Of a stretch of DNA of 51,804 nucleotides, positions 1,838 to 47,464 are shown one piece after another. The notes below the pieces were generated by a model that saw nothing but the letters and a program-made list of their open reading frames with translations, did not search any database and was not told the origin of the DNA. The DNA is taken from positions 1 through 51,804 of the IMG/VR virus record IMGVR_UViG_3300034110_000722. One strand, written 5' to 3'. The DNA comes from a virus. Within the stretch, counting starts at the first letter, position 1; each line of letters starts with the position of its first letter. The translations under genes were made by a program, and so were the position numbers.

Positions 1838-4146
1838 TCATACCCCTGATCAATACCATACCGGGCGACATCCGCCCCACTGTGCAGCGAGTATAGCAGA
1901 CCGCACACCGCTACGTCCTCTTGGAAATACGGACGGATTTGCCGACCCGCTTCACGATAGCCCATCCCTTCAAGCACTGCACGGATCGCGTGGGGCGGCA
2001 GATTGCCGCGCACCACCTGCCGATCGCGCATGTGCTTCAGTGCTGCAATCTCCGACACCCAGCCAGCAGCGAAACCTGGTGCTCTCGTCTCAATCGCTTC
2101 AGCCAGAGCGCGCTCGATGGGTGAGCGGCTGATGCTCACTGCCTCATCCCAGCTGGTGGTGATGGGTGCGCGCATCGGAATGCTGTCGCGGCTGACCGGA
2201 CGGGTGGACAGGTAATGTGCGACATGCTTCTGCCCGTCACCCCTGAGCCACTTGTAGAGCGCCTTGAAATAGTCATCGTCCATGCCGCGCGCCAGCAGAT
2301 CGTCGAAGGTCTGGATCGGACTATAGAAGATCGCATAGCGGCGACCATTGCGCGACACCGGCACAGCGTCTTTCCAATTTGAGAAAAACATCCACTTGGC
2401 GCAGTTGTCTTCCATCTCCTGATCGACACCCTTGCTCTGCACCTCAATCAGTTCTTCGGAGATGAGCGGCTTGAGCACTTCGACGAGGTGCCGCTTTTCG
2501 TCAACCTTGATCTCGTCAGCAAGGATGAATACCTTGCCGCGCATCCACCCGTTGAATTTGCCGCCGCTGTCAGCCAGTTGCTGTGCATCGGGGAAGTGGA
2601 CGTAAGGTGCGCCGACTGCATAGGTCATGGCGATCTTGATCACGTTCTTGCCGATCCCCTCAGCCGACTGAATAACAGGTGCCCACGGGATCTTGAAGCC
2701 GGGGAACTGCACCACGGCAGCCATCCAGTCGAGCAGGATGTTCAGGTCGTTCGGGTCAGGAATGATCGCTTGCAGGTGGCGCAGGAACGGTCCTACGTCA
2801 CCCGGCACCGTGTCGATGGCTGGGCGGACGTAGGTATTCACACCCTTCCGACCGAGCACGTCCACAATGATTTCGGACGGTTCACGGTCTGGCAGGAAGC
2901 GCAGGTGATCCACCTTTGGCACCCGCCACAGTGTCGAGCGTGTTGCAGCCTTCCACGGTTCGTCCGTGGTCTTGCCGTCCTGCGTGATGATGAATTTCTT
3001 GCCGCTGTAGTCGCCGCTGTTGAAGCTGGTCTGCGTGTAGAACCTGCCGTTCGGCAGCATCATCTTGCCCATCGACCCGACGAAGACGCAGCCCTTGAAC
3101 CAGATTTTGCATTCCTCGGATGTCAGGAACTCACCGCTGCAATCCAATGCAGGCGGCTCCTGTGTGGGCATAGGCGGTGCAGATGGTGCGCGTGCTGCGG
3201 GTGCGGGTGTTGCGCCGCTCACTCCGAAAGATGTCATCGCTTTGAGTGAAGGTATGCGTGACACAAGTGACTTCCACCCAAGTTGCGTGCTGTCGATCGA
3301 GCGCCACAATTTTTCGTTCTCGGCAGCGCTATCGTTCGTATAACCAGAACACCAGTTGAGCCACATCGCTTTAAGGTCGTCAGGCTCCATCAGGGTCCAA
3401 CCCGACTGCTTGAATGCAGCGGTGATGCCGAGCCAATCCTCTCTCGACAACTCATTCGGATCAACCAGTTCAAGTGCGCGCTTCAACCATTCGACACTCG
3501 GTGCAGCAAGCGACACGTCACCCAAGTTGTGCCGTTCGCCGCCGCCGTCGATGACCGTGACATGCACAAGTGCTGCTTCGAGTTGATCCACAGTGAGCGG
3601 ATGACCGTAGCCAGGTAGTGCTTCGCAGTGCGCGAGATAGGGATGACTGTATTTATGATTGAGAGTCCCCGGCACCCTGAGCACGCGGGTAGCATCAATA
3701 ACCGCTTTGTCACCGTTGAACAGGGTGCGGAGTTTACGCTGAACCGTTTTGAAGCGATCATTGTCTTGATAGCCGATCACCGGCCAATATGTGTGATACT
3801 TTCCCGGAGATGAGAACACACGAAATCCAGGTGCGGGTAGCCATTGCGCAGCTGCTTCGGACTGCTGTTGAGCGTCGATGCCGTCGTGATCCACCACATG
3901 CGCTCGGATCATCTGGACGTTGTGCATTTCTCGACCGTGCCCGTCCATCTGTGAGACGGTAACGAAGCAACCGTGCTGCGCATTGTTCCACGCGCAAAGC
4001 CACTCCCAAGCCTGCGCAAGAGTGCCACGGAACACCTGACCCGGCGCACCGCGATCCACATCGGACAGGCAGCGCCAGTCCATGACGGATTCACTGCTGC
4101 CGCTCAGCGCCGTAACGTAAGCGCTTGCAAGTTCAAAATTCTGCAT
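1834..4146 (-). CDS. Primase-helicase (RepB-like primase, PriCT-2, SF3-like ATPase)
   Basis: 770 residues. Residues 1-195 look like a RepB-type archaeo-eukaryotic primase: VVDHDG (about 84-89), a KYHTYWPV segment and RVPGTLNHK (157-165). Residues 215-300 fit a PriCT-2 linker domain (WLKRALELVDPNELSREDW). After a Pro-rich stretch (310-335) the C-terminal half carries a D5/DUF5906-like helicase: P-loop QSAEGIGKN (493-501) and Walker B VFILADEI (539-546). The P-loop ends in KN instead of the usual KT or KS. It should prime and unwind phage DNA, working with the family B polymerase. Its start is overlapped by 14 bases by an HNH endonuclease gene. Confidence 0.85.
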   Translation of the reverse strand: MQNFELASAYVTALSGSSESVMDWRCLSDVDRGAPGQVFRGTLAQAWEWLCAWNNAQHGCFVTVSQMDGHGREMHNVQMIRAHVVDHDGIDAQQQSEAAAQWLPAPGFRVFSSPGKYHTYWPVIGYQDNDRFKTVQRKLRTLFNGDKAVIDATRVLRVPGTLNHKYSHPYLAHCEALPGYGHPLTVDQLEAALVHVTVIDGGGERHNLGDVSLAAPSVEWLKRALELVDPNELSREDWLGITAAFKQSGWTLMEPDDLKAMWLNWCSGYTNDSAAENEKLWRSIDSTQLGWKSLVSRIPSLKAMTSFGVSGATPAPAARAPSAPPMPTQEPPALDCSGEFLTSEECKIWFKGCVFVGSMGKMMLPNGRFYTQTSFNSGDYSGKKFIITQDGKTTDEPWKAATRSTLWRVPKVDHLRFLPDREPSEIIVDVLGRKGVNTYVRPAIDTVPGDVGPFLRHLQAIIPDPNDLNILLDWMAAVVQFPGFKIPWAPVIQSAEGIGKNVIKIAMTYAVGAPYVHFPDAQQLADSGGKFNGWMRGKVFILADEIKVDEKRHLVEVLKPLISEELIEVQSKGVDQEMEDNCAKWMFFSNWKDAVPVSRNGRRYAIFYSPIQTFDDLLARGMDDDYFKALYKWLRGDGQKHVAHYLSTRPVSRDSIPMRAPITTSWDEAVSISRSPIERALAEAIETRAPGFAAGWVSEIAALKHMRDRQVVRGNLPPHAIRAVLEGMGYREAGRQIRPYFQEDVAVCGLLYSLHSGADVARYGIDQGYE

Positions 4147-4711
4147 TGCGCAACTCTTTCAAGCGTTGGATCACTTCGGGTCGGTGCGCATGACGTTCGG
4201 CAACAGCGCAACACATCGCGATGAAGTCGATTTCAAGGTGTTGGTTTTTGCCTGTGTTGTACATATTGCATACGACTTGCGCGTTACGGAAGGTGTAACC
4301 TTGTTTCGGATCAATCCTGTCAATCGAAGATGCTGTGCCGACGCGACCACCTGTGCGCGGCGCTGCAAACTTCAAACCTGATTTTTCGCAGACGCCTCGC
4401 CTAAGTCGTTCTAAAACCCAATCGTTGGTGATTTCAAATTCAAGACTGTATTTTTTAGCTCTTGTGCGAGCCGATAAAATCAGAGCCTTTGCGTGACCTT
4501 CAAGTGTTTGTCGATAAGCGAGCATTCGCTTTATGGTTTTTTCCGAGTTCCGCACGTAGTGTTTCTTCGCGTAATCGGAACAACACGAACGACAGTGATC
4601 GGACAAACCGGTGTGCCGCTTACTGTGCTTGTTGTAGTTGTCACGGTGAAGCCACTTGTCACAGCCGGGGCAGTGCTTGTAGTCTCCGACCATTTCTTTT
4701 CTGACGCTCAC
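4133..4711 (-). CDS. Free-standing HNH homing-type endonuclease (copy 1)
   Basis: 192 residues from a GTG whose bases overlap the upstream stop (GTGA), with GGAGGAAGG in front; a longer GTG start at 4726 is less likely. The N-terminus holds a CPGC...CRSC zinc-finger pair; a basic helix follows; the C-terminal HNH core reads SSIDRIDPKQGYTFRNAQVV then CNMYNTGKN. Two sister genes at 11389-11970 and 18843-19385 share zinc finger and core. It overlaps the primase-helicase start by 14 bases. The base composition is clearly richer in A/T than that gene, which fits a mobile endonuclease. Confidence 0.88.
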   Translation of the reverse strand: MSVRKEMVGDYKHCPGCDKWLHRDNYNKHSKRHTGLSDHCRSCCSDYAKKHYVRNSEKTIKRMLAYRQTLEGHAKALILSARTRAKKYSLEFEITNDWVLERLRRGVCEKSGLKFAAPRTGGRVGTASSIDRIDPKQGYTFRNAQVVCNMYNTGKNQHLEIDFIAMCCAVAERHAHRPEVIQRLKELRNAEF

Positions 4712-5112
4712 GCCTTCCTCCCCCACACCGCTTCAACGTCCGCAACCCGCCACCGACGCGGCTGAGTGCCGGGGATCGGCGCGATTGCGAATCGCCCGTC
4801 TTCCAACATGTTGTAGAAGGTTTTTCGGCTGACACCGACCATTTTAGCGACACGACTTGCGTCGCAGGTGCTCGGCTTGCCGTCTCTTTTAACATGTGTC
4901 TTGTTGTAGAGAGGTTTTTCTGATTTTATCGCCAGTCTCTCAGATTCGGCTGCTTGAGACATGGTTTCAAAGTGTTCAATAGTGATTGCTGTAATTCTTC
5001 TGAACCAGTGCGATTCAGATTTGTGCTGCTTCACGCGCGTAAAGGTGCTGGCTGAGATACCAACATAGAGAAGAACACCGTCTCGGTCGTAGTGTCGATA
5101 CAACTCAGCCAT
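4708..5112 (-). CDS. GIY-YIG nuclease fused to a helix-turn-helix domain
   Basis: 134 residues. The N-terminal 75 residues form a GIY-YIG domain: LYRHYDRDG, then LLYVGISAS, an Arg in FTRVKQHK, and the metal-binding Glu in ESERLAIK followed by PLYN. The C-terminal part (DASRVAKMVGVSRKTFYNML and RRWRVADVEAVW) is a MerR/excisionase-like helix-turn-helix. ATG at 5112 is preferred: it overlaps the upstream stop by 8 bases and follows GGGGGGTG. It probably cuts DNA at sites chosen by the HTH, as a mobile endonuclease. A/T-rich central part. Confidence 0.78.
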   Translation of the reverse strand: MAELYRHYDRDGVLLYVGISASTFTRVKQHKSESHWFRRITAITIEHFETMSQAAESERLAIKSEKPLYNKTHVKRDGKPSTCDASRVAKMVGVSRKTFYNMLEDGRFAIAPIPGTQPRRWRVADVEAVWGRKA

Positions 5113-5296
5113 CACTGCACCCCCCAACAAATGCTTCAACCGCAGCACGGTGCCACACAGGCGGCTCGATCCCGGTGAGCGGCTGCACGGGGCACACGCC
5201 GCGCTTGACCCACTTGCGTAGGGTTTTTCGATCTATCCCTAGTGCTGCGGCGGTCTCAGTGCTATTCAGCAGAGCCTTGGGGCTTGTGTCCGTCAT
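5105..5296 (-). CDS. MerR/excisionase-like HTH protein (63 aa)
   Basis: The core reads NSTETAAALGIDRKTLRKWV followed by a wing-like PVWHRAAVEAFV, typical of small MerR-type or phage excisionase HTH proteins. It resembles the C-terminal domain of the GIY-YIG protein encoded next (same RKT turn and closing W..A.VEA), so one may derive from the other. ATG at 5296 is chosen over a GTG at 5359 because the extra N-terminus is not HTH-like. As first gene of the leftward operon it is a candidate autoregulator. Confidence 0.65.
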   Translation of the reverse strand: MTDTSPKALLNSTETAAALGIDRKTLRKWVKRGVCPVQPLTGIEPPVWHRAAVEAFVGGCSDG

Positions 5297-8693: not shown

Positions 8694-9067
8694 AGCGACC
8701 GCACCTGCGCCGGATCGGTCACGAAGCCCCCGATGCCCCCGACCGATCGGATCAGGTCGATAAAGCGCGCTTGAGCCGCTGCCCGCTGATCGCCGGGGGT
8801 CATGTGCCAGTCGGAATGCTTGCATTCAATCGCTGTGAAGACACCGAGCGTGCGCCCCACATGATGCGGTTGGATCAGGACGGGCATGACTCCGATAAGG
8901 TCGCTGCTGGCGAGCGCCCGGTTCATTTGCTGAGAGTCGTTGCAGAGACCGTATCGAATGATGCGACCCTGCTTGTCCTCACAGGCTCCCACGTTGTTGC
9001 GATAGGCGAGCGCGCCGAGGCGTGCGAGTTCGAGGCGGACGCGCTGCTGTACGGCTGATTCAAGCAT
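8681..9067 (-). CDS. VRR-NUC domain nuclease
   Basis: 128 residues starting MLESAVQQRVRLELARLGAL. The PD-(D/E)XK elements are visible: Glu in the first helix, SSDLIGVMPV (Asp), FTAIECKHSDW (E-x-K), then a DQRAAAQARFIDLI helix with GGIGGFV. This is the VRR-NUC layout; such phage proteins act as structure-specific nucleases beside SF2 helicases. That fits the helicase encoded upstream in this operon. Start overlaps the methyltransferase stop. Confidence 0.8.
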   Translation of the reverse strand: MLESAVQQRVRLELARLGALAYRNNVGACEDKQGRIIRYGLCNDSQQMNRALASSDLIGVMPVLIQPHHVGRTLGVFTAIECKHSDWHMTPGDQRAAAQARFIDLIRSVGGIGGFVTDPAQVRSLCTL

Positions 9068-9752
9068 TGATTTCGCTCCACACCCGACCGACTGCGGGGT
9101 AATAGTACGCCTGATCACGCTCAATCGACAACCATCTGCGACCTGTGCGCTCTGCTGCAACCGCTGTGGTTCCACTGCCGCCAAACGGGTCGAGTACCAG
9201 ATCACCTACGTCTGTGCTGTTCTCAATATAATGACACATTAATTCGGCTGGTTTTTCTGTCGGATGTCTTTTGTTGCGAGGGTTGTCAAACTTGAAACCT
9301 TGCGATGAAGACATGTCGTTGATGGGCTTTACGGGTCGTTTCGCTGCGAAAATTGTATATTCACAGTCCTTCATATACCATCTGTTTGCAGTCTTATTAT
9401 TCTTATCCCATCGAAGCAGGTTGTGAAAATGAAAACCGTGTTCTTCGACAGCATTCAAAGCGTCACGAAGGTTAAGGTTGTTAGTCATAAGATAAAGATG
9501 CGACGCCGGTTTTAACACTCGATGTAAAACAGGCAAGTAATCGTCAAAATTGATTTCGTTGTGTGTGAAAATTTTACCATCGTTCTTTGAAAGCACTGAG
9601 GTTTTCCAACCTGCTGCAAGTTTAGATGATGTACCACCACTAATCACTTTATATGGTGGATCAGTAACAACGCAATCAACACTGCCATCCGGCACAGCCG
9701 ACAGCAAATCAAGGCAGTCACCCAGCCAGAACTCTCCGTTGCCGATCTTCAT
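9060..9752 (-). CDS. DNA methyltransferase (N4-cytosine or N6-adenine, beta class)
   Basis: 230 residues from an ATG overlapping the helicase stop (ATGA). The catalytic DPPY lies at residues 31-34 (DCVVTDPPYKV), before the AdoMet motif DPFGGSGTTAVAAERTGRRW near the C-terminus, the order of beta-class N4/N6 methyltransferases. RHPTEKPAELM is typical of the family. The central third (about 9200-9670) is much richer in A/T than both ends, which suggests replacement of the target-recognition region by recombination. The target base cannot be decided from sequence. Confidence 0.85.
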   Translation of the reverse strand: MKIGNGEFWLGDCLDLLSAVPDGSVDCVVTDPPYKVISGGTSSKLAAGWKTSVLSKNDGKIFTHNEINFDDYLPVLHRVLKPASHLYLMTNNLNLRDALNAVEEHGFHFHNLLRWDKNNKTANRWYMKDCEYTIFAAKRPVKPINDMSSSQGFKFDNPRNKRHPTEKPAELMCHYIENSTDVGDLVLDPFGGSGTTAVAAERTGRRWLSIERDQAYYYPAVGRVWSEINA

Positions 9753-11392
9753 ACCTGATACCAACCCTCCACCTTAGCAGCCAGCGCATCCATCTCAGCG
9801 CGCTTCCCGGCCATTGCAGTCAACACGTCCACACCGGTCGTCAGGTAAAAGCGCCGCAATATGCTCTGATCACTCTCACCCGCAGCACGTCGCACACCCG
9901 CCCACTGCTCGATGGCCTGCTTCAGACGTTCTTGGCTGGCATGACGCTCCATCTGCCGGTTCACCGCACCCGCAGCAGCCACCGGCCCCGCGACAGCCCC
10001 CACACGTTCCGCAACGTCGCCGGGTGCCTCAAGCTGCATCGCAGCGCGCATTGCGGCAAGTGTGGCGCGGTCGAGCAGCATCAGATCCCCGTCCACCTGC
10101 TCGATGCTGCGTGCGCCGCCCTCTGGCACAGGCGGTGCCTCGCCGCAATACGGACAGGCTGGCAGGCAGCGCTCATACGGGCGGCTGCACGACCGGCAGG
10201 CAGTGAGCGGTATGTCGTCTGGATCAGGCTCGCGCCTGCTGCGTTTGTCGCGGCGGTCGAGCGTCCACAGTCGGGGCCGGTCAGGCAGTCCGTGGCGTTT
10301 CCAATTGCTCACGTGGTCGATCACCCAGCCCGTCGTTTTGCCGGGGAAGACACGCATTGCACGTCCGAACATCTGAAGAAACTTGTTCAGCGATGCAGTT
10401 GGACGGGCCATGATGACCACTTCACACGCGGGCACGTTGAATCCCTCATCGAACAGATCGACGTTTACCAGCACCTGAATGCGACCGTCCTTGAAGCGGC
10501 GGATCATGTCACGCCTGACACCCGTGTCGGTCTTGGCGCTGACCGAAGCAGCTGGAATACCCGCTTCATTGAAGCGACTGGCGATTTCATTGGACGTTTC
10601 AACATCTGTAGCAAAGCAGATGGCGCGCTTGCCGTTCACCCAGCGTTGATACTCTGCAACCACATCCCCGACGATGTGCGACTTCTTGGATGCTTCGCGC
10701 ATCTTTACAGGACTGAAGTCGCCCTTCGCAGTGATCGCATCGTCACCGATTTCATAGTCCGACACCGGCACAATGATTTCATATTCGGACAGCGCACCCA
10801 TGTCGATCAGTTCGCGCATGGTAGGCCCGACACACATTGCATCAAACAGCCCCTCGTGATGACGACCGAGACCGTTACCGTCTGCGCGCGACGGGCAGGC
10901 TGTCACACCGAGACCGAATGCGTTCGGGAACAGTTCGACCGCCTTGCCCCAGGTGTTGCCTTTCAGCAGGTGGTGGGACTCATCGAGTGTCCAGCGGTTT
11001 ACTTGCTGACCCCACGACCGCAGTTCATCAATGCGGCTCATGATCGTTTGGACTGAGCCGACCGCGCAACGTGCGTCAGGGTTGTAAAATGACCGCCCGA
11101 ACTCAGCGCGGTGTTCTGCTACGATGCCAGCGATCGTTGATTTGCTGCCGATGATGCGATGCGGAATGCCGCGCTCTGCAACAGCCAGTGACATTTGCCC
11201 AACGAGTTCATTGCGGTGTGCCATGATACACTCAGTAAGACCCTGATTGTGCCCGTCGAGAATGATGTCCGTAGAAAGCACGGTCTTGCCACTGCCGGTT
11301 GGCGCGATCGCAAGCACGTTGCGAGCGCCGTTCTGCCACGCTTCATAGATGCGCCGCTTCAAGTCTGCTTGGTCTGGGCGGAGTGTGATCAT
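9749..11392 (-). CDS. Superfamily 2 DNA helicase (intact copy)
   Basis: 547 residues. Walker A APTGSGKT at 30-37, motif II LDESHH at 136-141, motif III-like GVTACPSR, and a helicase C domain with FDEGFNVP and QMFGRAMRV. A zinc ribbon (CRSC...CPYC) follows about residue 400, then a helical C-terminus. This DEAD/H-type phage helicase probably remodels forks or recombination intermediates. Its ATG overlaps the HNH stop (ATGA). A second, broken copy of its N-terminus lies on the other side of the HNH gene. Confidence 0.88.
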   Translation of the reverse strand: MITLRPDQADLKRRIYEAWQNGARNVLAIAPTGSGKTVLSTDIILDGHNQGLTECIMAHRNELVGQMSLAVAERGIPHRIIGSKSTIAGIVAEHRAEFGRSFYNPDARCAVGSVQTIMSRIDELRSWGQQVNRWTLDESHHLLKGNTWGKAVELFPNAFGLGVTACPSRADGNGLGRHHEGLFDAMCVGPTMRELIDMGALSEYEIIVPVSDYEIGDDAITAKGDFSPVKMREASKKSHIVGDVVAEYQRWVNGKRAICFATDVETSNEIASRFNEAGIPAASVSAKTDTGVRRDMIRRFKDGRIQVLVNVDLFDEGFNVPACEVVIMARPTASLNKFLQMFGRAMRVFPGKTTGWVIDHVSNWKRHGLPDRPRLWTLDRRDKRSRREPDPDDIPLTACRSCSRPYERCLPACPYCGEAPPVPEGGARSIEQVDGDLMLLDRATLAAMRAAMQLEAPGDVAERVGAVAGPVAAAGAVNRQMERHASQERLKQAIEQWAGVRRAAGESDQSILRRFYLTTGVDVLTAMAGKRAEMDALAAKVEGWYQV

Positions 11393-11970
11393 TTGTTGAA
11401 CTCAACCACACACTTGCAGAACATAATGTACTCTTCGTCCGTCATCTGATTTTTACCAATGTTGTAAGCCACACACACGACCTGAACGTTATCATCGGTG
11501 TAAGGGCCGAAGGGGTCTATTTTATCCAGCGATGGTGCGAAAGGGTTGTTCTGCTTTTCGGGGTGTGGTCTCAAATCGAACGGTATTGCTGTTCGTTCGC
11601 AGAAGCCTCTCGCTACCGCTTTTTCAATTTTTTCATAGGACAGATCGAAAAATATGTTGTTTTTCTTCGCTCTAACCTGAGCGCCTTTCCACATCTGTTT
11701 TGATCTGCCTCTTATCGACGACCGGTATCTGTCAGCGATACGCTTGTAGTCTTCAGCATGTTCAACTCTGTATCTTTTTTGACGCGCTCTTATTTCTTCT
11801 CGGTTCTGTTCATAGCGATTTTTGTGTTTCTCTTTGTTTCGCAGGTAAGAATCGCGGTTGTCTTCTCTACCACAGGGCTTGCATCTTTTTTGCAACCCGT
11901 CTTTAAACGCTTTGTTTTTCGCAAAGTCGCTGAATGGTTTCTCGATTTTACACTTATCACAACGCTTCAT
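11389..11970 (-). CDS. Free-standing HNH homing-type endonuclease (copy 2)
   Basis: 193 residues from ATG 11970. N-terminal zinc finger MKRCDKCKIEKPF...RCKPCGR, long Arg/Glu-rich helix, then the HNH core PSLDKIDPFGPYTDDNVQVV and CVAYNIGKNQM shared with copies 1 and 3. The gene starts at the point where a helicase reading frame breaks off in its P-loop and ends on the ATG of the intact helicase, so it interrupts a helicase locus. A/T-rich relative to neighbours. Confidence 0.88.
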   Translation of the reverse strand: MKRCDKCKIEKPFSDFAKNKAFKDGLQKRCKPCGREDNRDSYLRNKEKHKNRYEQNREEIRARQKRYRVEHAEDYKRIADRYRSSIRGRSKQMWKGAQVRAKKNNIFFDLSYEKIEKAVARGFCERTAIPFDLRPHPEKQNNPFAPSLDKIDPFGPYTDDNVQVVCVAYNIGKNQMTDEEYIMFCKCVVEFNK

Positions 11971-12080
11971 ATCTTGTAACCAGTCGGCATGATGGCGAGC
12001 ACGTTGCGGTTGCCAGCTTGGTACGACTGGTAGATGCGCGCGATGATGTCGGATTGGTAGGGGCGCAGTTGGATTGTCAC
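11967..12080 (-). pseudogene. Truncated N-terminus of an SF2 helicase
   Basis: Translation from GTG 12080 gives 37 residues, VTIQLRPYQSDIIARIYQSY then QAGNRNVLAIMPTG, and stops after YKI. It aligns with residues 1-33 of the intact helicase (MITLRPDQADLKRRIYEAWQ then NGARNVLAIAPTG) and ends in the middle of the Walker A motif. GTG overlaps the stop of the gene upstream (GTGA), so this was the normal helicase start before the HNH gene arrived. The DNA is diverged from the intact copy, so this is not a recent duplication. Confidence 0.8.
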
Positions 12081-12694
12081 AGCGTGGCACCCCATTGTTC
12101 GGCCATCGCAGCGGCAAAACCGGCATAGAAGCGTGATCGCTCGTGCCCACGGTTCGGCCCAGGCGACATGTAGTGGATGCGCTCCCGTTCACGCTTCGGG
12201 AGTGTCATCATGTGTTCGTACACATTGTTCGTCTCCACCAGTCGCGGTAGGTTCCACAGCGCGAAACCTGTTTTCTTCTGCTCCGGGTGCCCGTGCTGCC
12301 ACGGGTGAATGTACTGCACGTCAGCTTGGTATGCACCACGCAGGACGGGGAATATAACTGACGCGGGGTTTTCGACCGCAACACGATCGCTCTGAGCGCG
12401 TGCAAGCCCTACAGTCTCGCACGTCCAGGCGATTGCCGCCAAACGCTTTCCGTAACCCGAGGATGTGGTTCCGTAGTGCATGTTACCGCAGACGGCCATT
12501 GCAGTGCAGTCAGGGTGCAGAACGATCAAGTCCCACCGCCGCAGCATGATAGCCGCCCGCACATCGCATTGCATGTGCCAAGTCGGATCACCTTCGCACG
12601 GCTTCAGGTCGCACGAGAATGCGTCGTGCCCGCAAGCACGGAACGCATCTCGCACTGTGGCGGAATACTCGCAACCAATCAGAACTGCTGTCAC
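12077..12694 (-). CDS. C5-cytosine-methyltransferase-like phage protein
   Basis: 205 residues. The start VTAVLIGCEYSATVRDAFRA is the AdoMet motif I region of phage Dcm-like proteins; CDLKPCEGD follows, then LIVLHPDCTAMAVCGN at the catalytic loop and VENPASVI at the ENV position. The loop normally has a Pro-Cys pair (HPPCT); here Pro is replaced by Asp (HPDCT). No clear target-recognition domain. It may be a cytosine methyltransferase, a base-modification relative or inactive. Confidence 0.65.
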   Translation of the reverse strand: MTAVLIGCEYSATVRDAFRACGHDAFSCDLKPCEGDPTWHMQCDVRAAIMLRRWDLIVLHPDCTAMAVCGNMHYGTTSSGYGKRLAAIAWTCETVGLARAQSDRVAVENPASVIFPVLRGAYQADVQYIHPWQHGHPEQKKTGFALWNLPRLVETNNVYEHMMTLPKRERERIHYMSPGPNRGHERSRFYAGFAAAMAEQWGATL

Positions 12695-18619: not shown

Positions 18620-18846
18620 CTGACGCACCCCCTCGCGCGCTGGACTGCGATGCCTATGTGCGGCTTGCTTGCCGTCCGATCATCGTCACGCTGAACGGTA
18701 TGCAGCAGCGATATGTTGCAGCCTATAACGTCGATGAAGGCTGGATCGAGCGTTACATCACGGACGAGCGCGGCAACCTGTCGATTTATGAAGACGAGTA
18801 TCGGAGTGAGATTGTTCGCGGTATTGTGATGGTGTTTTGGGGATGA
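18616..18846 (+). CDS. Hypothetical phage protein (76 aa)
   Basis: Starts MTDAPPRALDCDAYVRLACR; the core VTLNGMQQRYVAAYNVDEGW resembles a beta-rich small phage family (ligand-like NGxxxxxVxxxD..G). It overlaps both neighbours by four bases. The HNH endonuclease follows directly. Confidence 0.5.
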   Translation: MTDAPPRALDCDAYVRLACRPIIVTLNGMQQRYVAAYNVDEGWIERYITDERGNLSIYEDEYRSEIVRGIVMVFWG

Positions 18847-19385
18847 GTGTTACCACCGATCATATACTGGATGACATGATGGGTTGCGCTCGATGTGATC
18901 GAATGCTTCCGTCCGCTTGGTTTCAGGCGCGCTCCGATACAGGTCGCAAGCGAACTGTTTGCCACGAGTGCCGAATAAATCAGATCAGTCAATGGCAGAC
19001 TGTAAACCGCGAACAAACACGAACGAATCAGCGTCGTTATAATCGCACGTTTCGCGGGCGAGCCATAATTCTCTTCAACGCCGCAAAAGCGAGAGCAAAA
19101 CAACGCAGTGAAGATTTCAGACTAGAATTACATCATGTGATTGAAATGCTTTCTGTCGGAGTATGTCAACGAACTGGTGTAGAGTTTGAATACGAAAACA
19201 CCGTAGGAGGCACGCAATCGCCTTACGCTCCGTCGCTTGATAGAATTGACAGAAACGGCATATATGAACCGGGTAACGTGCAGATAGTGTGCTTTTGGTA
19301 TAATGCTGCGAAACAACAGTGGCCTGAACACATCACCATTGAACTGTGCAAAAGCGTAGCGAGGAAACACAGTGATAGCGATTGA
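18843..19385 (+). CDS. Free-standing HNH homing-type endonuclease (copy 3)
   Basis: 180 residues from ATG overlapping the stop before it. Zinc finger GCARCDRM...CHECR, basic helix, then HNH core PSLDRIDRNGIYEPGNVQIV and CFWYNAAKQQ. Same architecture as copies at 4133 and 11389, but on the opposite strand. Its end overlaps the DNA polymerase start by 14 bases, exactly as copy 1 overlaps the primase. The gene and the first 350 bases of the polymerase are A/T-rich. Confidence 0.88.
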   Translation: MSVTTDHILDDMMGCARCDRMLPSAWFQARSDTGRKRTVCHECRINQISQWQTVNREQTRTNQRRYNRTFRGRAIILFNAAKARAKQRSEDFRLELHHVIEMLSVGVCQRTGVEFEYENTVGGTQSPYAPSLDRIDRNGIYEPGNVQIVCFWYNAAKQQWPEHITIELCKSVARKHSDSD

Positions 19386-46185: not shown

Positions 46186-46390
46186 CATACTCCCTCTCGC
46201 CTGTGCAGATGCGTGCTGCTACCGTCTCAACGATCTCAGCAATACCCCTGCGGTCGCGGCCATGCAACAGTCCGAGACCGATGCAAAGACTCTCAATGAT
46301 GACCCACTGCGCCGCTTCATCCTGCGTGTGACGCGCGAGCAGCGGCATGACCTCTCGGACGGTGGTGTTGTGTGCTTGGCTGGGGGTCAC
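46175..46390 (-). CDS. Small hypothetical protein (71 aa)
   Basis: From GTG overlapping the stop of the Ala-rich gene (GTGA). Helical: TVREVMPLLARHTQDEAAQW and IESLCIGLGLLHGRDRRGIA. No family recognised. Confidence 0.5.
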   Translation of the reverse strand: MTPSQAHNTTVREVMPLLARHTQDEAAQWVIIESLCIGLGLLHGRDRRGIAEIVETVAARICTGEREYDDR

Positions 46391-47103
46391 AGTGTCACCA
46401 CAGGTGCTTCAGCGATTAGACGAAGCAGTGTGTCGCGCTGTCTCAGTCGAGCATGAGCAGCAGCAGCATAAGCAGCACGAGCAGCAGTGTCAGCAGCACG
46501 AGCAGCATAAGCAGCAGCGCGAGCAGCAGCATCAGCAGCGCGAGCAGCAACATAAGCAGCAGCGCGAGCAGCAACATAAGCAGCAGCGCGAGCAGCAGCA
46601 TGAGCAGCAGCGCGAGCATCAGCATCAGCAGCGCGAGCAGCAGCATCAGCAGCGCGAGCAGCAGCGCGAGCAGCAGCGCGAGCAGCAGCAGCAGCGCGCG
46701 ACCATTCACCGCCTGCTGCGAGTTTGTCCATGCCAGCGATCACAGCGTCGATCTCGGGCATCTGCACGGGCAAGGCGCGCAACTCGCTCGCCAGAAAAGC
46801 CCAGTGTACCCGCGACAGATCCTTGCCGTCACAGCCGATCGCAGCAGGCAAACCAGCAAAGAAATGCTTGGCTTCAGCGGGCGGAAGTGCCTCAAAAATC
46901 CCTTCAGCGATCCGAAGCAAGGGTAGTGTCAGACCGAACTGCTCGATTGCCACCGTGGGGTCGCTGCTGTGGGACAGGCAACCGATGAAGCACCCGCGCC
47001 CGTTGTCCCAGTAGGTGCCCTGCACAACCTGATCGGCTGCAACGTGTGCTGCGACCTGAGCGGTGAGGACGTCGAAATTCTTGGTGAGTATGCTGGTGGT
47101 CAT
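46387..47103 (-). CDS. Phage protein with Ala/Arg repeat tail
   Basis: 238 residues; ATG 47103 follows AACAGGAGAC. Residues 1-130 match a known phage family: a GTYWDNGRGCFIGCLSHSSD motif, helical core, and VHWAFLASELRA. Residues 140-220 are almost only Ala with regularly spaced Arg/Asp (ARAAARAADAAARAADADAR), expected to form a long helix. The DNA there is a degenerate GCAGCN repeat. Tail length probably varies between relatives. Function unknown. Confidence 0.68.
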   Translation of the reverse strand: MTTSILTKNFDVLTAQVAAHVAADQVVQGTYWDNGRGCFIGCLSHSSDPTVAIEQFGLTLPLLRIAEGIFEALPPAEAKHFFAGLPAAIGCDGKDLSRVHWAFLASELRALPVQMPEIDAVIAGMDKLAAGGEWSRAAAAARAAARAAARAADAAARAADADARAAAHAAARAAAYVAARAAAYVAARAADAAARAAAYAARAADTAARAAYAAAAHARLRQRDTLLRLIAEAPVVTL

Positions 47104-47116
47104 AGTGTGTCTCCTG

Positions 47117-47464
47117 TTAGTTGGTTGCGAGCCATTGGGCGATATGAGCGGGTGCTGTGAATGAACCATTCCGGGTCTGGACGGTAGCCCTTCCGCCGAT
47201 CGGGGCCAGCAGCACACCAGTGATCCCCAGCATCTGAGCAACCGAGCCGAGTGGGGCACCTGTTGCGGTTGTGCAGGTCTGAGCCTGCATCGTCAGAGCG
47301 CGCTCACCTATCTCAAGCACCGTTCGGGCTGCGTCGATGTGAGCCTTTCGGACGTTGACCATATCAGGGTGGTCGAAATCATAGCCCTTCCACGATCCGG
47401 CGCGCTGCCGATGTTCAAATGTTGCGCGTGCAGCGCGTTCGACAAGTGCTTCACTTATCAGCAT
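47117..47464 (-). CDS. Hypothetical protein, first gene of the late operon (115 aa)
   Basis: Starts MLISEALVERAARATFEHRQ after ACAGGAGACAGAC. A helical N-terminus with VERAARATFEHR...W..YDFDHPDMVNVRKAH and a beta C-terminus. The helix is common in small phage proteins. Function unknown. Confidence 0.55.
   Translation of the reverse strand: MLISEALVERAARATFEHRQRAGSWKGYDFDHPDMVNVRKAHIDAARTVLEIGERALTMQAQTCTTATGAPLGSVAQMLGITGVLLAPIGGRATVQTRNGSFTAPAHIAQWLATN

What the first reader, a model, noticed from the sequence alone, without database searches (positions are those of the whole stretch)
11389..12080. Scar of an HNH homing event in the helicase P-loop
Seen: GTG 12080 starts a normal helicase N-terminus (LRPYQSDIIARIYQSY...NVLAIMPTG) that breaks off inside Walker A; the HNH gene begins on that break and ends on the ATG of a complete helicase with the same N-terminal plan. 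The stub and the intact copy are diverged in DNA, so this is not a simple duplication. Inference: the endonuclease invaded a helicase P-loop, a conserved target, and an intact helicase was kept or regained from another phage.
Basis: partly seen in the sequence, partly recalled or inferred. Interest (0 to 1): 0.78.

Follow-up and report, generated by a model that had tools for sequence, protein, structure and literature searches.

The report
Homing nuclease scar in helicase gene
A phage helicase gene was broken inside its ATP-binding (P-loop) codons by the arrival of a selfish DNA-cutting gene, which left the broken old start behind and sits next to a replacement helicase start from another phage; this kind of replacement is known from fungal mitochondria, but I found no described phage case.

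Summary
On the minus strand: a 37-codon helicase stub (12080-11967), a 193-aa PacI-like HNH nuclease (11970-11389) and a full SF2 helicase (11392-9749), joined by ATGA overlaps. The stub is a real helicase 5' end: 28/32 residues (84% nt) match related phage L002, but only 20/32 (65% nt) match the intact copy beside it. Relatives L039, L002 and L016 lack the HNH; L039 is an empty site, with the same upstream gene directly overlapping an intact stub-type helicase. The window's intact helicase is a chimera: codons 1-~356 group with another lineage (L019, support 100/98), codons ~357-547 with the stub-type lineage (max-chi-square p<=2e-4). HNH GC is 43.5% against 57-66% around it. Inteins of the same helicase family sit in the same P-loop, about 3 codons away. 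Of 40 loci where this HNH family abuts a larger gene, one other (Rhizobium phage RHph_X2_24, terminase) has a stub above the null. Best reading: intronless homing from a donor whose HNH sat at a helicase start, joined in the P-loop on one side and by homologous crossover on the other. Cleavage was not shown and no donor was found. New variant of a known kind.

The parts
12077..12691 (-). Upstream gene (PHROG 757, DNA methyltransferase-like; true start uncertain); its stop overlaps the stub's GTG
   Evidence: same gene 85% aa in L039, where it directly precedes an intact helicase
11967..12080 (-). Helicase 5' stub, 37 codons plus stop; helicase similarity covers codons 1-34 and ends at the GGT codon (11979)
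11970..11979 (-). Left junction inside Walker A: last shared codon GGT at 11981-11979, then TACAAGAT, then HNH ATG at 11970
11389..11970 (-). PacI-like HNH (beta-beta-alpha-metal) endonuclease, 193 aa, 43.5% GC; stop overlaps the helicase ATG
9749..11392 (-). Complete SF2 helicase, 547 aa; codons 1-~356 L019-like, ~357-547 of the stub-type lineage
10314..10328 (-). Best estimate of the right crossover (codons 356-359; plausible range codons 350-390)
   Evidence: (max-chi-square, four parent pairs)

Best explanation
A scar of intronless homing by a free-standing PacI-like HNH endonuclease. In the donor phage the HNH gene lay directly upstream of, and overlapped by ATGA, an L019-type helicase. 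On co-infection the recipient's stub-type helicase gene was broken inside its P-loop codons. Repair from the donor joined HNH to the broken 5' end with little or no homology on the left, leaving the 34-codon stub. On the right it copied HNH plus about 356 foreign helicase codons and crossed back into the recipient's own helicase around codon 356-390, so the helicase was restored as a chimera. SHOWN: the stub belongs to the recipient lineage; a related phage has the empty site; the helicase is chimeric; the HNH is foreign in composition and of nuclease fold. INFERRED: that the HNH made the cut, that it cuts in the P-loop, that one event did both sides, and the donor's layout.
For: Empty site in L039 with DNA similarity running to exactly the GGT codon. 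Stub 78-84% nt to HNH-less stub-type helicases but 54-65% to L019, L003 and the intact copy. Chimera by diagnostic sites, max-chi-square and discordant trees. HNH GC 43.5% against 56.8-65.6% in its neighbours. Nuclease fold closest to PacI. Sister HNHs abut starts of primase, polymerase and terminase genes, so HNH-at-helicase-start is the expected donor layout. P-loop inteins in the same helicase family mark the site as a homing target. A second stub above null at an HNH-terminase locus.
Against: No donor with HNH before an L019-type helicase was found. No cleavage data. Related helicases are mosaic anyway (L002 against L039 fall to 70% nt in codons 151-250), so chimera and insertion could be separate events. 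No clear homology or microhomology explains the left junction. 38 of 40 comparable loci show no stub.
Confidence: 0.6

Rival explanations
1. Two steps: the HNH first split the stub-type helicase at the P-loop, as other HNHs split the DNA polymerase in relatives, and a later exchange with an L019-type phage supplied an intact N-terminus between HNH and the helicase body.
For: HNHs do split polymerase at about residue 482 in G003 and G009, with the C-part restarting as its own ORF. Helicases in this group recombine often.
Against: A split P-loop should kill the helicase, unlike a split between polymerase domains. The later exchange would have to join exactly at the HNH stop/helicase start, where the ATGA overlap is the usual start-site arrangement of this HNH family.
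Confidence: 0.2
2. Ordinary illegitimate phage recombination: a foreign block carrying HNH and helicase 5' end replaced the recipient's, and the junction fell in the P-loop by chance; the nuclease took no part.
For: Phage genomes are mosaic; L002 and L039 show exchange without any HNH at the helicase. The left junction shows no homology. No cleavage data.
Against: The junction lies within about three codons of the intein insertion point in three related helicases, and a second HNH locus carries a 5' stub of its own downstream gene.
Confidence: 0.15
3. The stub is a functional leader peptide or small gene that couples translation of HNH and helicase.
For: Overlapping start and stop codons at all three joins; low dN/dS of the stub against relatives (about 0.1).
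Against: No relative has it as a separate gene; conservation over 32 codons is equally expected if the break is recent. A coupling role would be secondary, not its origin.
Confidence: 0.05

Closest known systems
Mobile endonuclease ORFs that replace gene ends in fungal mtDNA (Allomyces macrogynus atp6; Glomus sp. atp6/atp9/cox2/nad3; PMC3630166)
   Same: A native gene end retained next to an endonuclease gene and a diverged foreign replacement of that end, giving a hybrid gene; native piece matches close relatives, foreign piece does not
   Different: There the 3' (C-terminal) end is replaced, by LAGLIDADG or GIY-YIG ORFs in mitochondria; here the 5' end, by a PacI-like HNH in a phage, and most of the helicase is converted
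Intronless homing of free-standing phage endonucleases with co-conversion (T4 SegF, SegG, MobE; PMC2988022)
   Same: Free-standing nuclease gene beside an essential gene, presumed to copy itself by break repair with co-conversion of the neighbour
   Different: Known cases leave clean allele replacement; I found none described with a 5' stub of the recipient gene left upstream of the nuclease. Cleavage not tested here
Phage genes split by free-standing endonucleases (Aeh1 nrdA/mobE, T4 gene 60/mobA; PMC2988022)
   Same: Nuclease gene inserted within an essential gene's coding sequence
   Different: There both halves remain in use; here the 5' half is a stub and a full gene follows
PacI restriction endonuclease (PDB 3ldy/3m7k)
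   Same: Zn-finger plus beta-beta-alpha-metal fold with the DR..GY..N....N motif
   Different: 193 aa against 142; the window protein has K in the DR position; target unknown

Membership tests
HNH (beta-beta-alpha-metal) nuclease, PacI-like | Sequence and fold similarity to a solved member | tested here: met
   Profile hit to PacI E=1.9e-7; Foldseek rank 1 PacI, prob 0.99 but E=0.033 and TM 0.39/0.50, so a distant relative
HNH (beta-beta-alpha-metal) nuclease, PacI-like | Conserved active-site motif S-x-D-R/K ... Y ... N ... N | tested here: met
   S147, D149, Y157, N161, N170 invariant in 37 sequences
HNH (beta-beta-alpha-metal) nuclease, PacI-like | DNA cleavage activity | not testable with these tools
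   Needs purified protein
Intronless homing system | Free-standing nuclease gene, present or absent among relatives at an occupied or empty site | tested here: met
   Present in window, absent in L039, L002, L016
Intronless homing system | Co-conversion of flanking sequence | tested here: met
   Chimeric helicase, although timing relative to the insertion is not shown
Intronless homing system | Nuclease cuts the empty allele and spares its own | not testable with these tools
   The two P-loop DNA sequences differ, but cleavage was not assayed
Group I intron or intein carrying a nuclease | Self-splicing RNA structure, or in-frame splicing domains | tested here: not met
   No Rfam hit at gathering threshold in the window and only a chance-level hit locally; stub, HNH and helicase are separate ORFs with stops
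F-CphI / DHHRN (Endo VII motif) homing endonucleases | Conserved DHDH...R...N motif (PMC6083498) | tested here: not met
   PHROG labels the group 'endonuclease VII', but the alignments show S-x-D-R/K without the histidines
Endonuclease-borne gene-end replacement (Allomyces/Glomus type) | Retained native end groups with close relatives while the replacement end groups elsewhere | tested here: met
   Stub with L002/L039/L016; intact N-terminus with L019

The most novel reading that the evidence does not exclude
PacI-like HNH genes that abut the start codons of phage replication and packaging genes are mobile units that carry an allelic 5' part of the essential gene as cargo: they break the recipient gene within its early conserved codons and hand it a new, cut-resistant start, so an essential gene can be invaded without being lost. 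The helicase stub here and the terminase stub in RHph_X2_24 would be two independent fossils of it.
Probability: 0.3. Interest if true: 0.65.

Novelty: new variant of a known kind. Interest (0 to 1): 0.5.

Why it matters
Recipient remnant, nuclease, foreign segment and crossover all lie within 2.3 kb, with an empty-site relative for comparison. It points to a testable target for an HNH of unknown specificity, offers a route by which phages swap helicase alleles, and is a 5'-end phage counterpart of the gene-end replacement known from fungal mitochondria.

Tried and rejected
Simple tandem duplication: rejected, stub and intact copy are 65% nt. Conserved small gene: rejected, absent in relatives. 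Intron or intein: no Rfam hit and separate ORFs. A donor with HNH at an L019-type helicase start: not found in IMG/VR, phage records or GTDB contigs. Stubs at other HNH-abutting loci: 38 of 40 at null level; a first version of that scan used a region that missed the known window stub, so it was replaced by the prefix test. Relatives of the X2_24 terminase did not tell which allele its stub belongs to. Microhomology at the left junction: none convincing by eye.

Full report
OBSERVATION. On the minus strand the order is upstream gene (PHROG 757), GTGA, stub, ATGA, HNH, ATGA, helicase. The stub reads VTIQLRPYQSDIIARIYQSYQAGNRNVLAIMPTG|YKI*. Helicase similarity ends at the GGT codon (11979), inside Walker A, 8 nt before the HNH ATG (11970). 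The stub hits ResIII (E=2e-4) and PHROG 16 helicase (E=2e-4). BLASTP gives 28/32 to L002, 20/32 to the window's intact copy and 14/32 to L003.

EMPTY SITE. A search with the upstream gene found L039 (same contig as L015, IMG/VR 3300016664_000174). It carries the same gene (85% aa) whose stop overlaps the GTG of an intact helicase VIQLRPYQSDLIARTYQSYQAGNRNVLAVLPTGGGKSV, with no HNH. The DNA alignment runs through the stub and stops exactly at the GGT codon. L002 and L016 have the same helicase type without HNH. Stub identity in DNA is 84% (L002), 81% (L039) and 78% (L016), against 54% (L019, L003) and 65% (window's own intact copy). Stub dN/dS against these is about 0.1, so most divergence predates the break, or constraint persists.

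CHIMERIC HELICASE. L019 has an HNH-less helicase with N-terminus LRPDQAKLKAGVYDAWQNGARNVLAIAPTGSGKTVLSTDIILDGH, close to the window's intact copy. At sites that separate the two types, codons 1-50 are 14 L019-like to 2 stub-type-like, and codons 401-450 are 0 to 13. Max-chi-square puts one break at codon 356-359 with all four parent pairs (p<=2e-4). Trees disagree accordingly: residues 1-350 place the window with L019 (100/98); residues 360-547 place it with L016 (96/93), next to L002 and L015 (82/80). Codons 391-450 are 87-91% nt to the stub-type helicases and 69-70% to L019 and L003. Caveat: L002 and L039 are mosaic to each other as well.

THE NUCLEASE. GC is 43.5%, against 56.8-65.6% in the flanking gene, stub and helicase parts (profile). 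It belongs to PHROG 1035/3322. An AlphaFold2 model (pLDDT 97) and a 37-member alignment point to PacI as nearest solved structure: profile E=1.9e-7 with Zn finger and DR..GY..N....N aligned, Foldseek rank 1, prob 0.99, though E=0.033. The PHROG label 'endonuclease VII' is not borne out by the DHHRN motif described for F-CphI (PMC6083498).

WIDER PATTERN. The window has two more HNHs of the family, at the starts of the primase (4711-4133) and DNA polymerase (18843-19385). In other phages relatives lie at the starts of a primase (SppYZU01), DNA polymerase (IME346), 'DNA maturase B' (BB8) and terminase (RHph_X2_24). Ten downstream genes scanned are four polymerases, three terminases, two primase/helicases and one primase. 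Relatives carry HNHs at primase and polymerase starts and inside the polymerase at about residue 482, where the C-part restarts as its own ORF. A prefix-stub test over 40 such loci gave two above null: the window helicase (96; null maximum 20) and RHph_X2_24 terminase (37; null maximum 16), where MTSSDLFNWQQ lies upstream of the HNH and MNSDLFDWQKK starts the terminase after it. The highest null score at any locus was 27; the second case rests on about nine residues and is moderate evidence. Related helicases carry inteins exactly in the P-loop (L026, L057, L079, between K and S/T), about three codons from the stub's break.

MECHANISM. The most economical account is one homing event: a break in the recipient's P-loop, a join to HNH on the left without clear homology, copying of HNH and foreign helicase 5' codons, and a homologous crossover back into the recipient helicase. 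The recipient-type P-loop (L039: CCG ACC GGT GGG GGT AAG TCG) and the present one (CCA ACC GGC AGT GGC AAG ACC) differ, as expected if the donor allele resists its own nuclease. The cut itself, its position and the donor layout are inferred. Rivals are a two-step history, chance mosaic recombination, and a leader-peptide role for the stub.

COMPARISON. It works like intronless homing with co-conversion (PMC2988022) and like the endonuclease-borne gene-end replacements of Allomyces and Glomus mitochondria (PMC3630166), but with the 5' instead of the 3' end replaced. Targeted searches of the open literature and passages read in related papers showed no phage case with a retained 5' stub; subscription literature was not searched.

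Noticed in passing
window 4708-5296 (-); L272 (reverse strand) about 650-1245: Helix-turn-helix gene in two allelic forms around a GIY-YIG nuclease domain: the window has HTH1 then GIY-YIG fused to HTH2; relative G003 has HTH2 then GIY-YIG fused to HTH1, the reverse order. It looks like another native copy + nuclease + foreign homologue arrangement.
   Followed up: partly
window 4133-4711 (-) and 18843-19385 (+): Two further PacI-like HNH genes whose 3' ends overlap the starts of the primase and the DNA polymerase, both low in GC (48.9% and 47.3%, window 58.4%) and without a stub above null.
   Followed up: yes
L271, L273, L275 (relatives G003, G009, G005): DNA polymerase split at the same place (about residue 482) in three relatives, by HNH genes in two and by a different short insert in G005; the window's polymerase is unbroken there.
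   Followed up: partly
L026, L057, L079; L027, L071, L078: Inteins in the same helicase family at two sites: in the P-loop (first three) and after a conserved DE, probably motif II (last three, with an overlapping ORF in another frame).
   Followed up: partly
window 9060-9764 (-): A low-GC (45.7%) DNA methyltransferase gene lies between helicase and the next gene, which directly follows the helicase in L002 and L019.
   Followed up: no
window 46387-47259 (-): A long ORF with an Ala/Arg/Asp-rich repetitive stretch (AARAADAAARAA...), seen in the ORF list.
   Followed up: no
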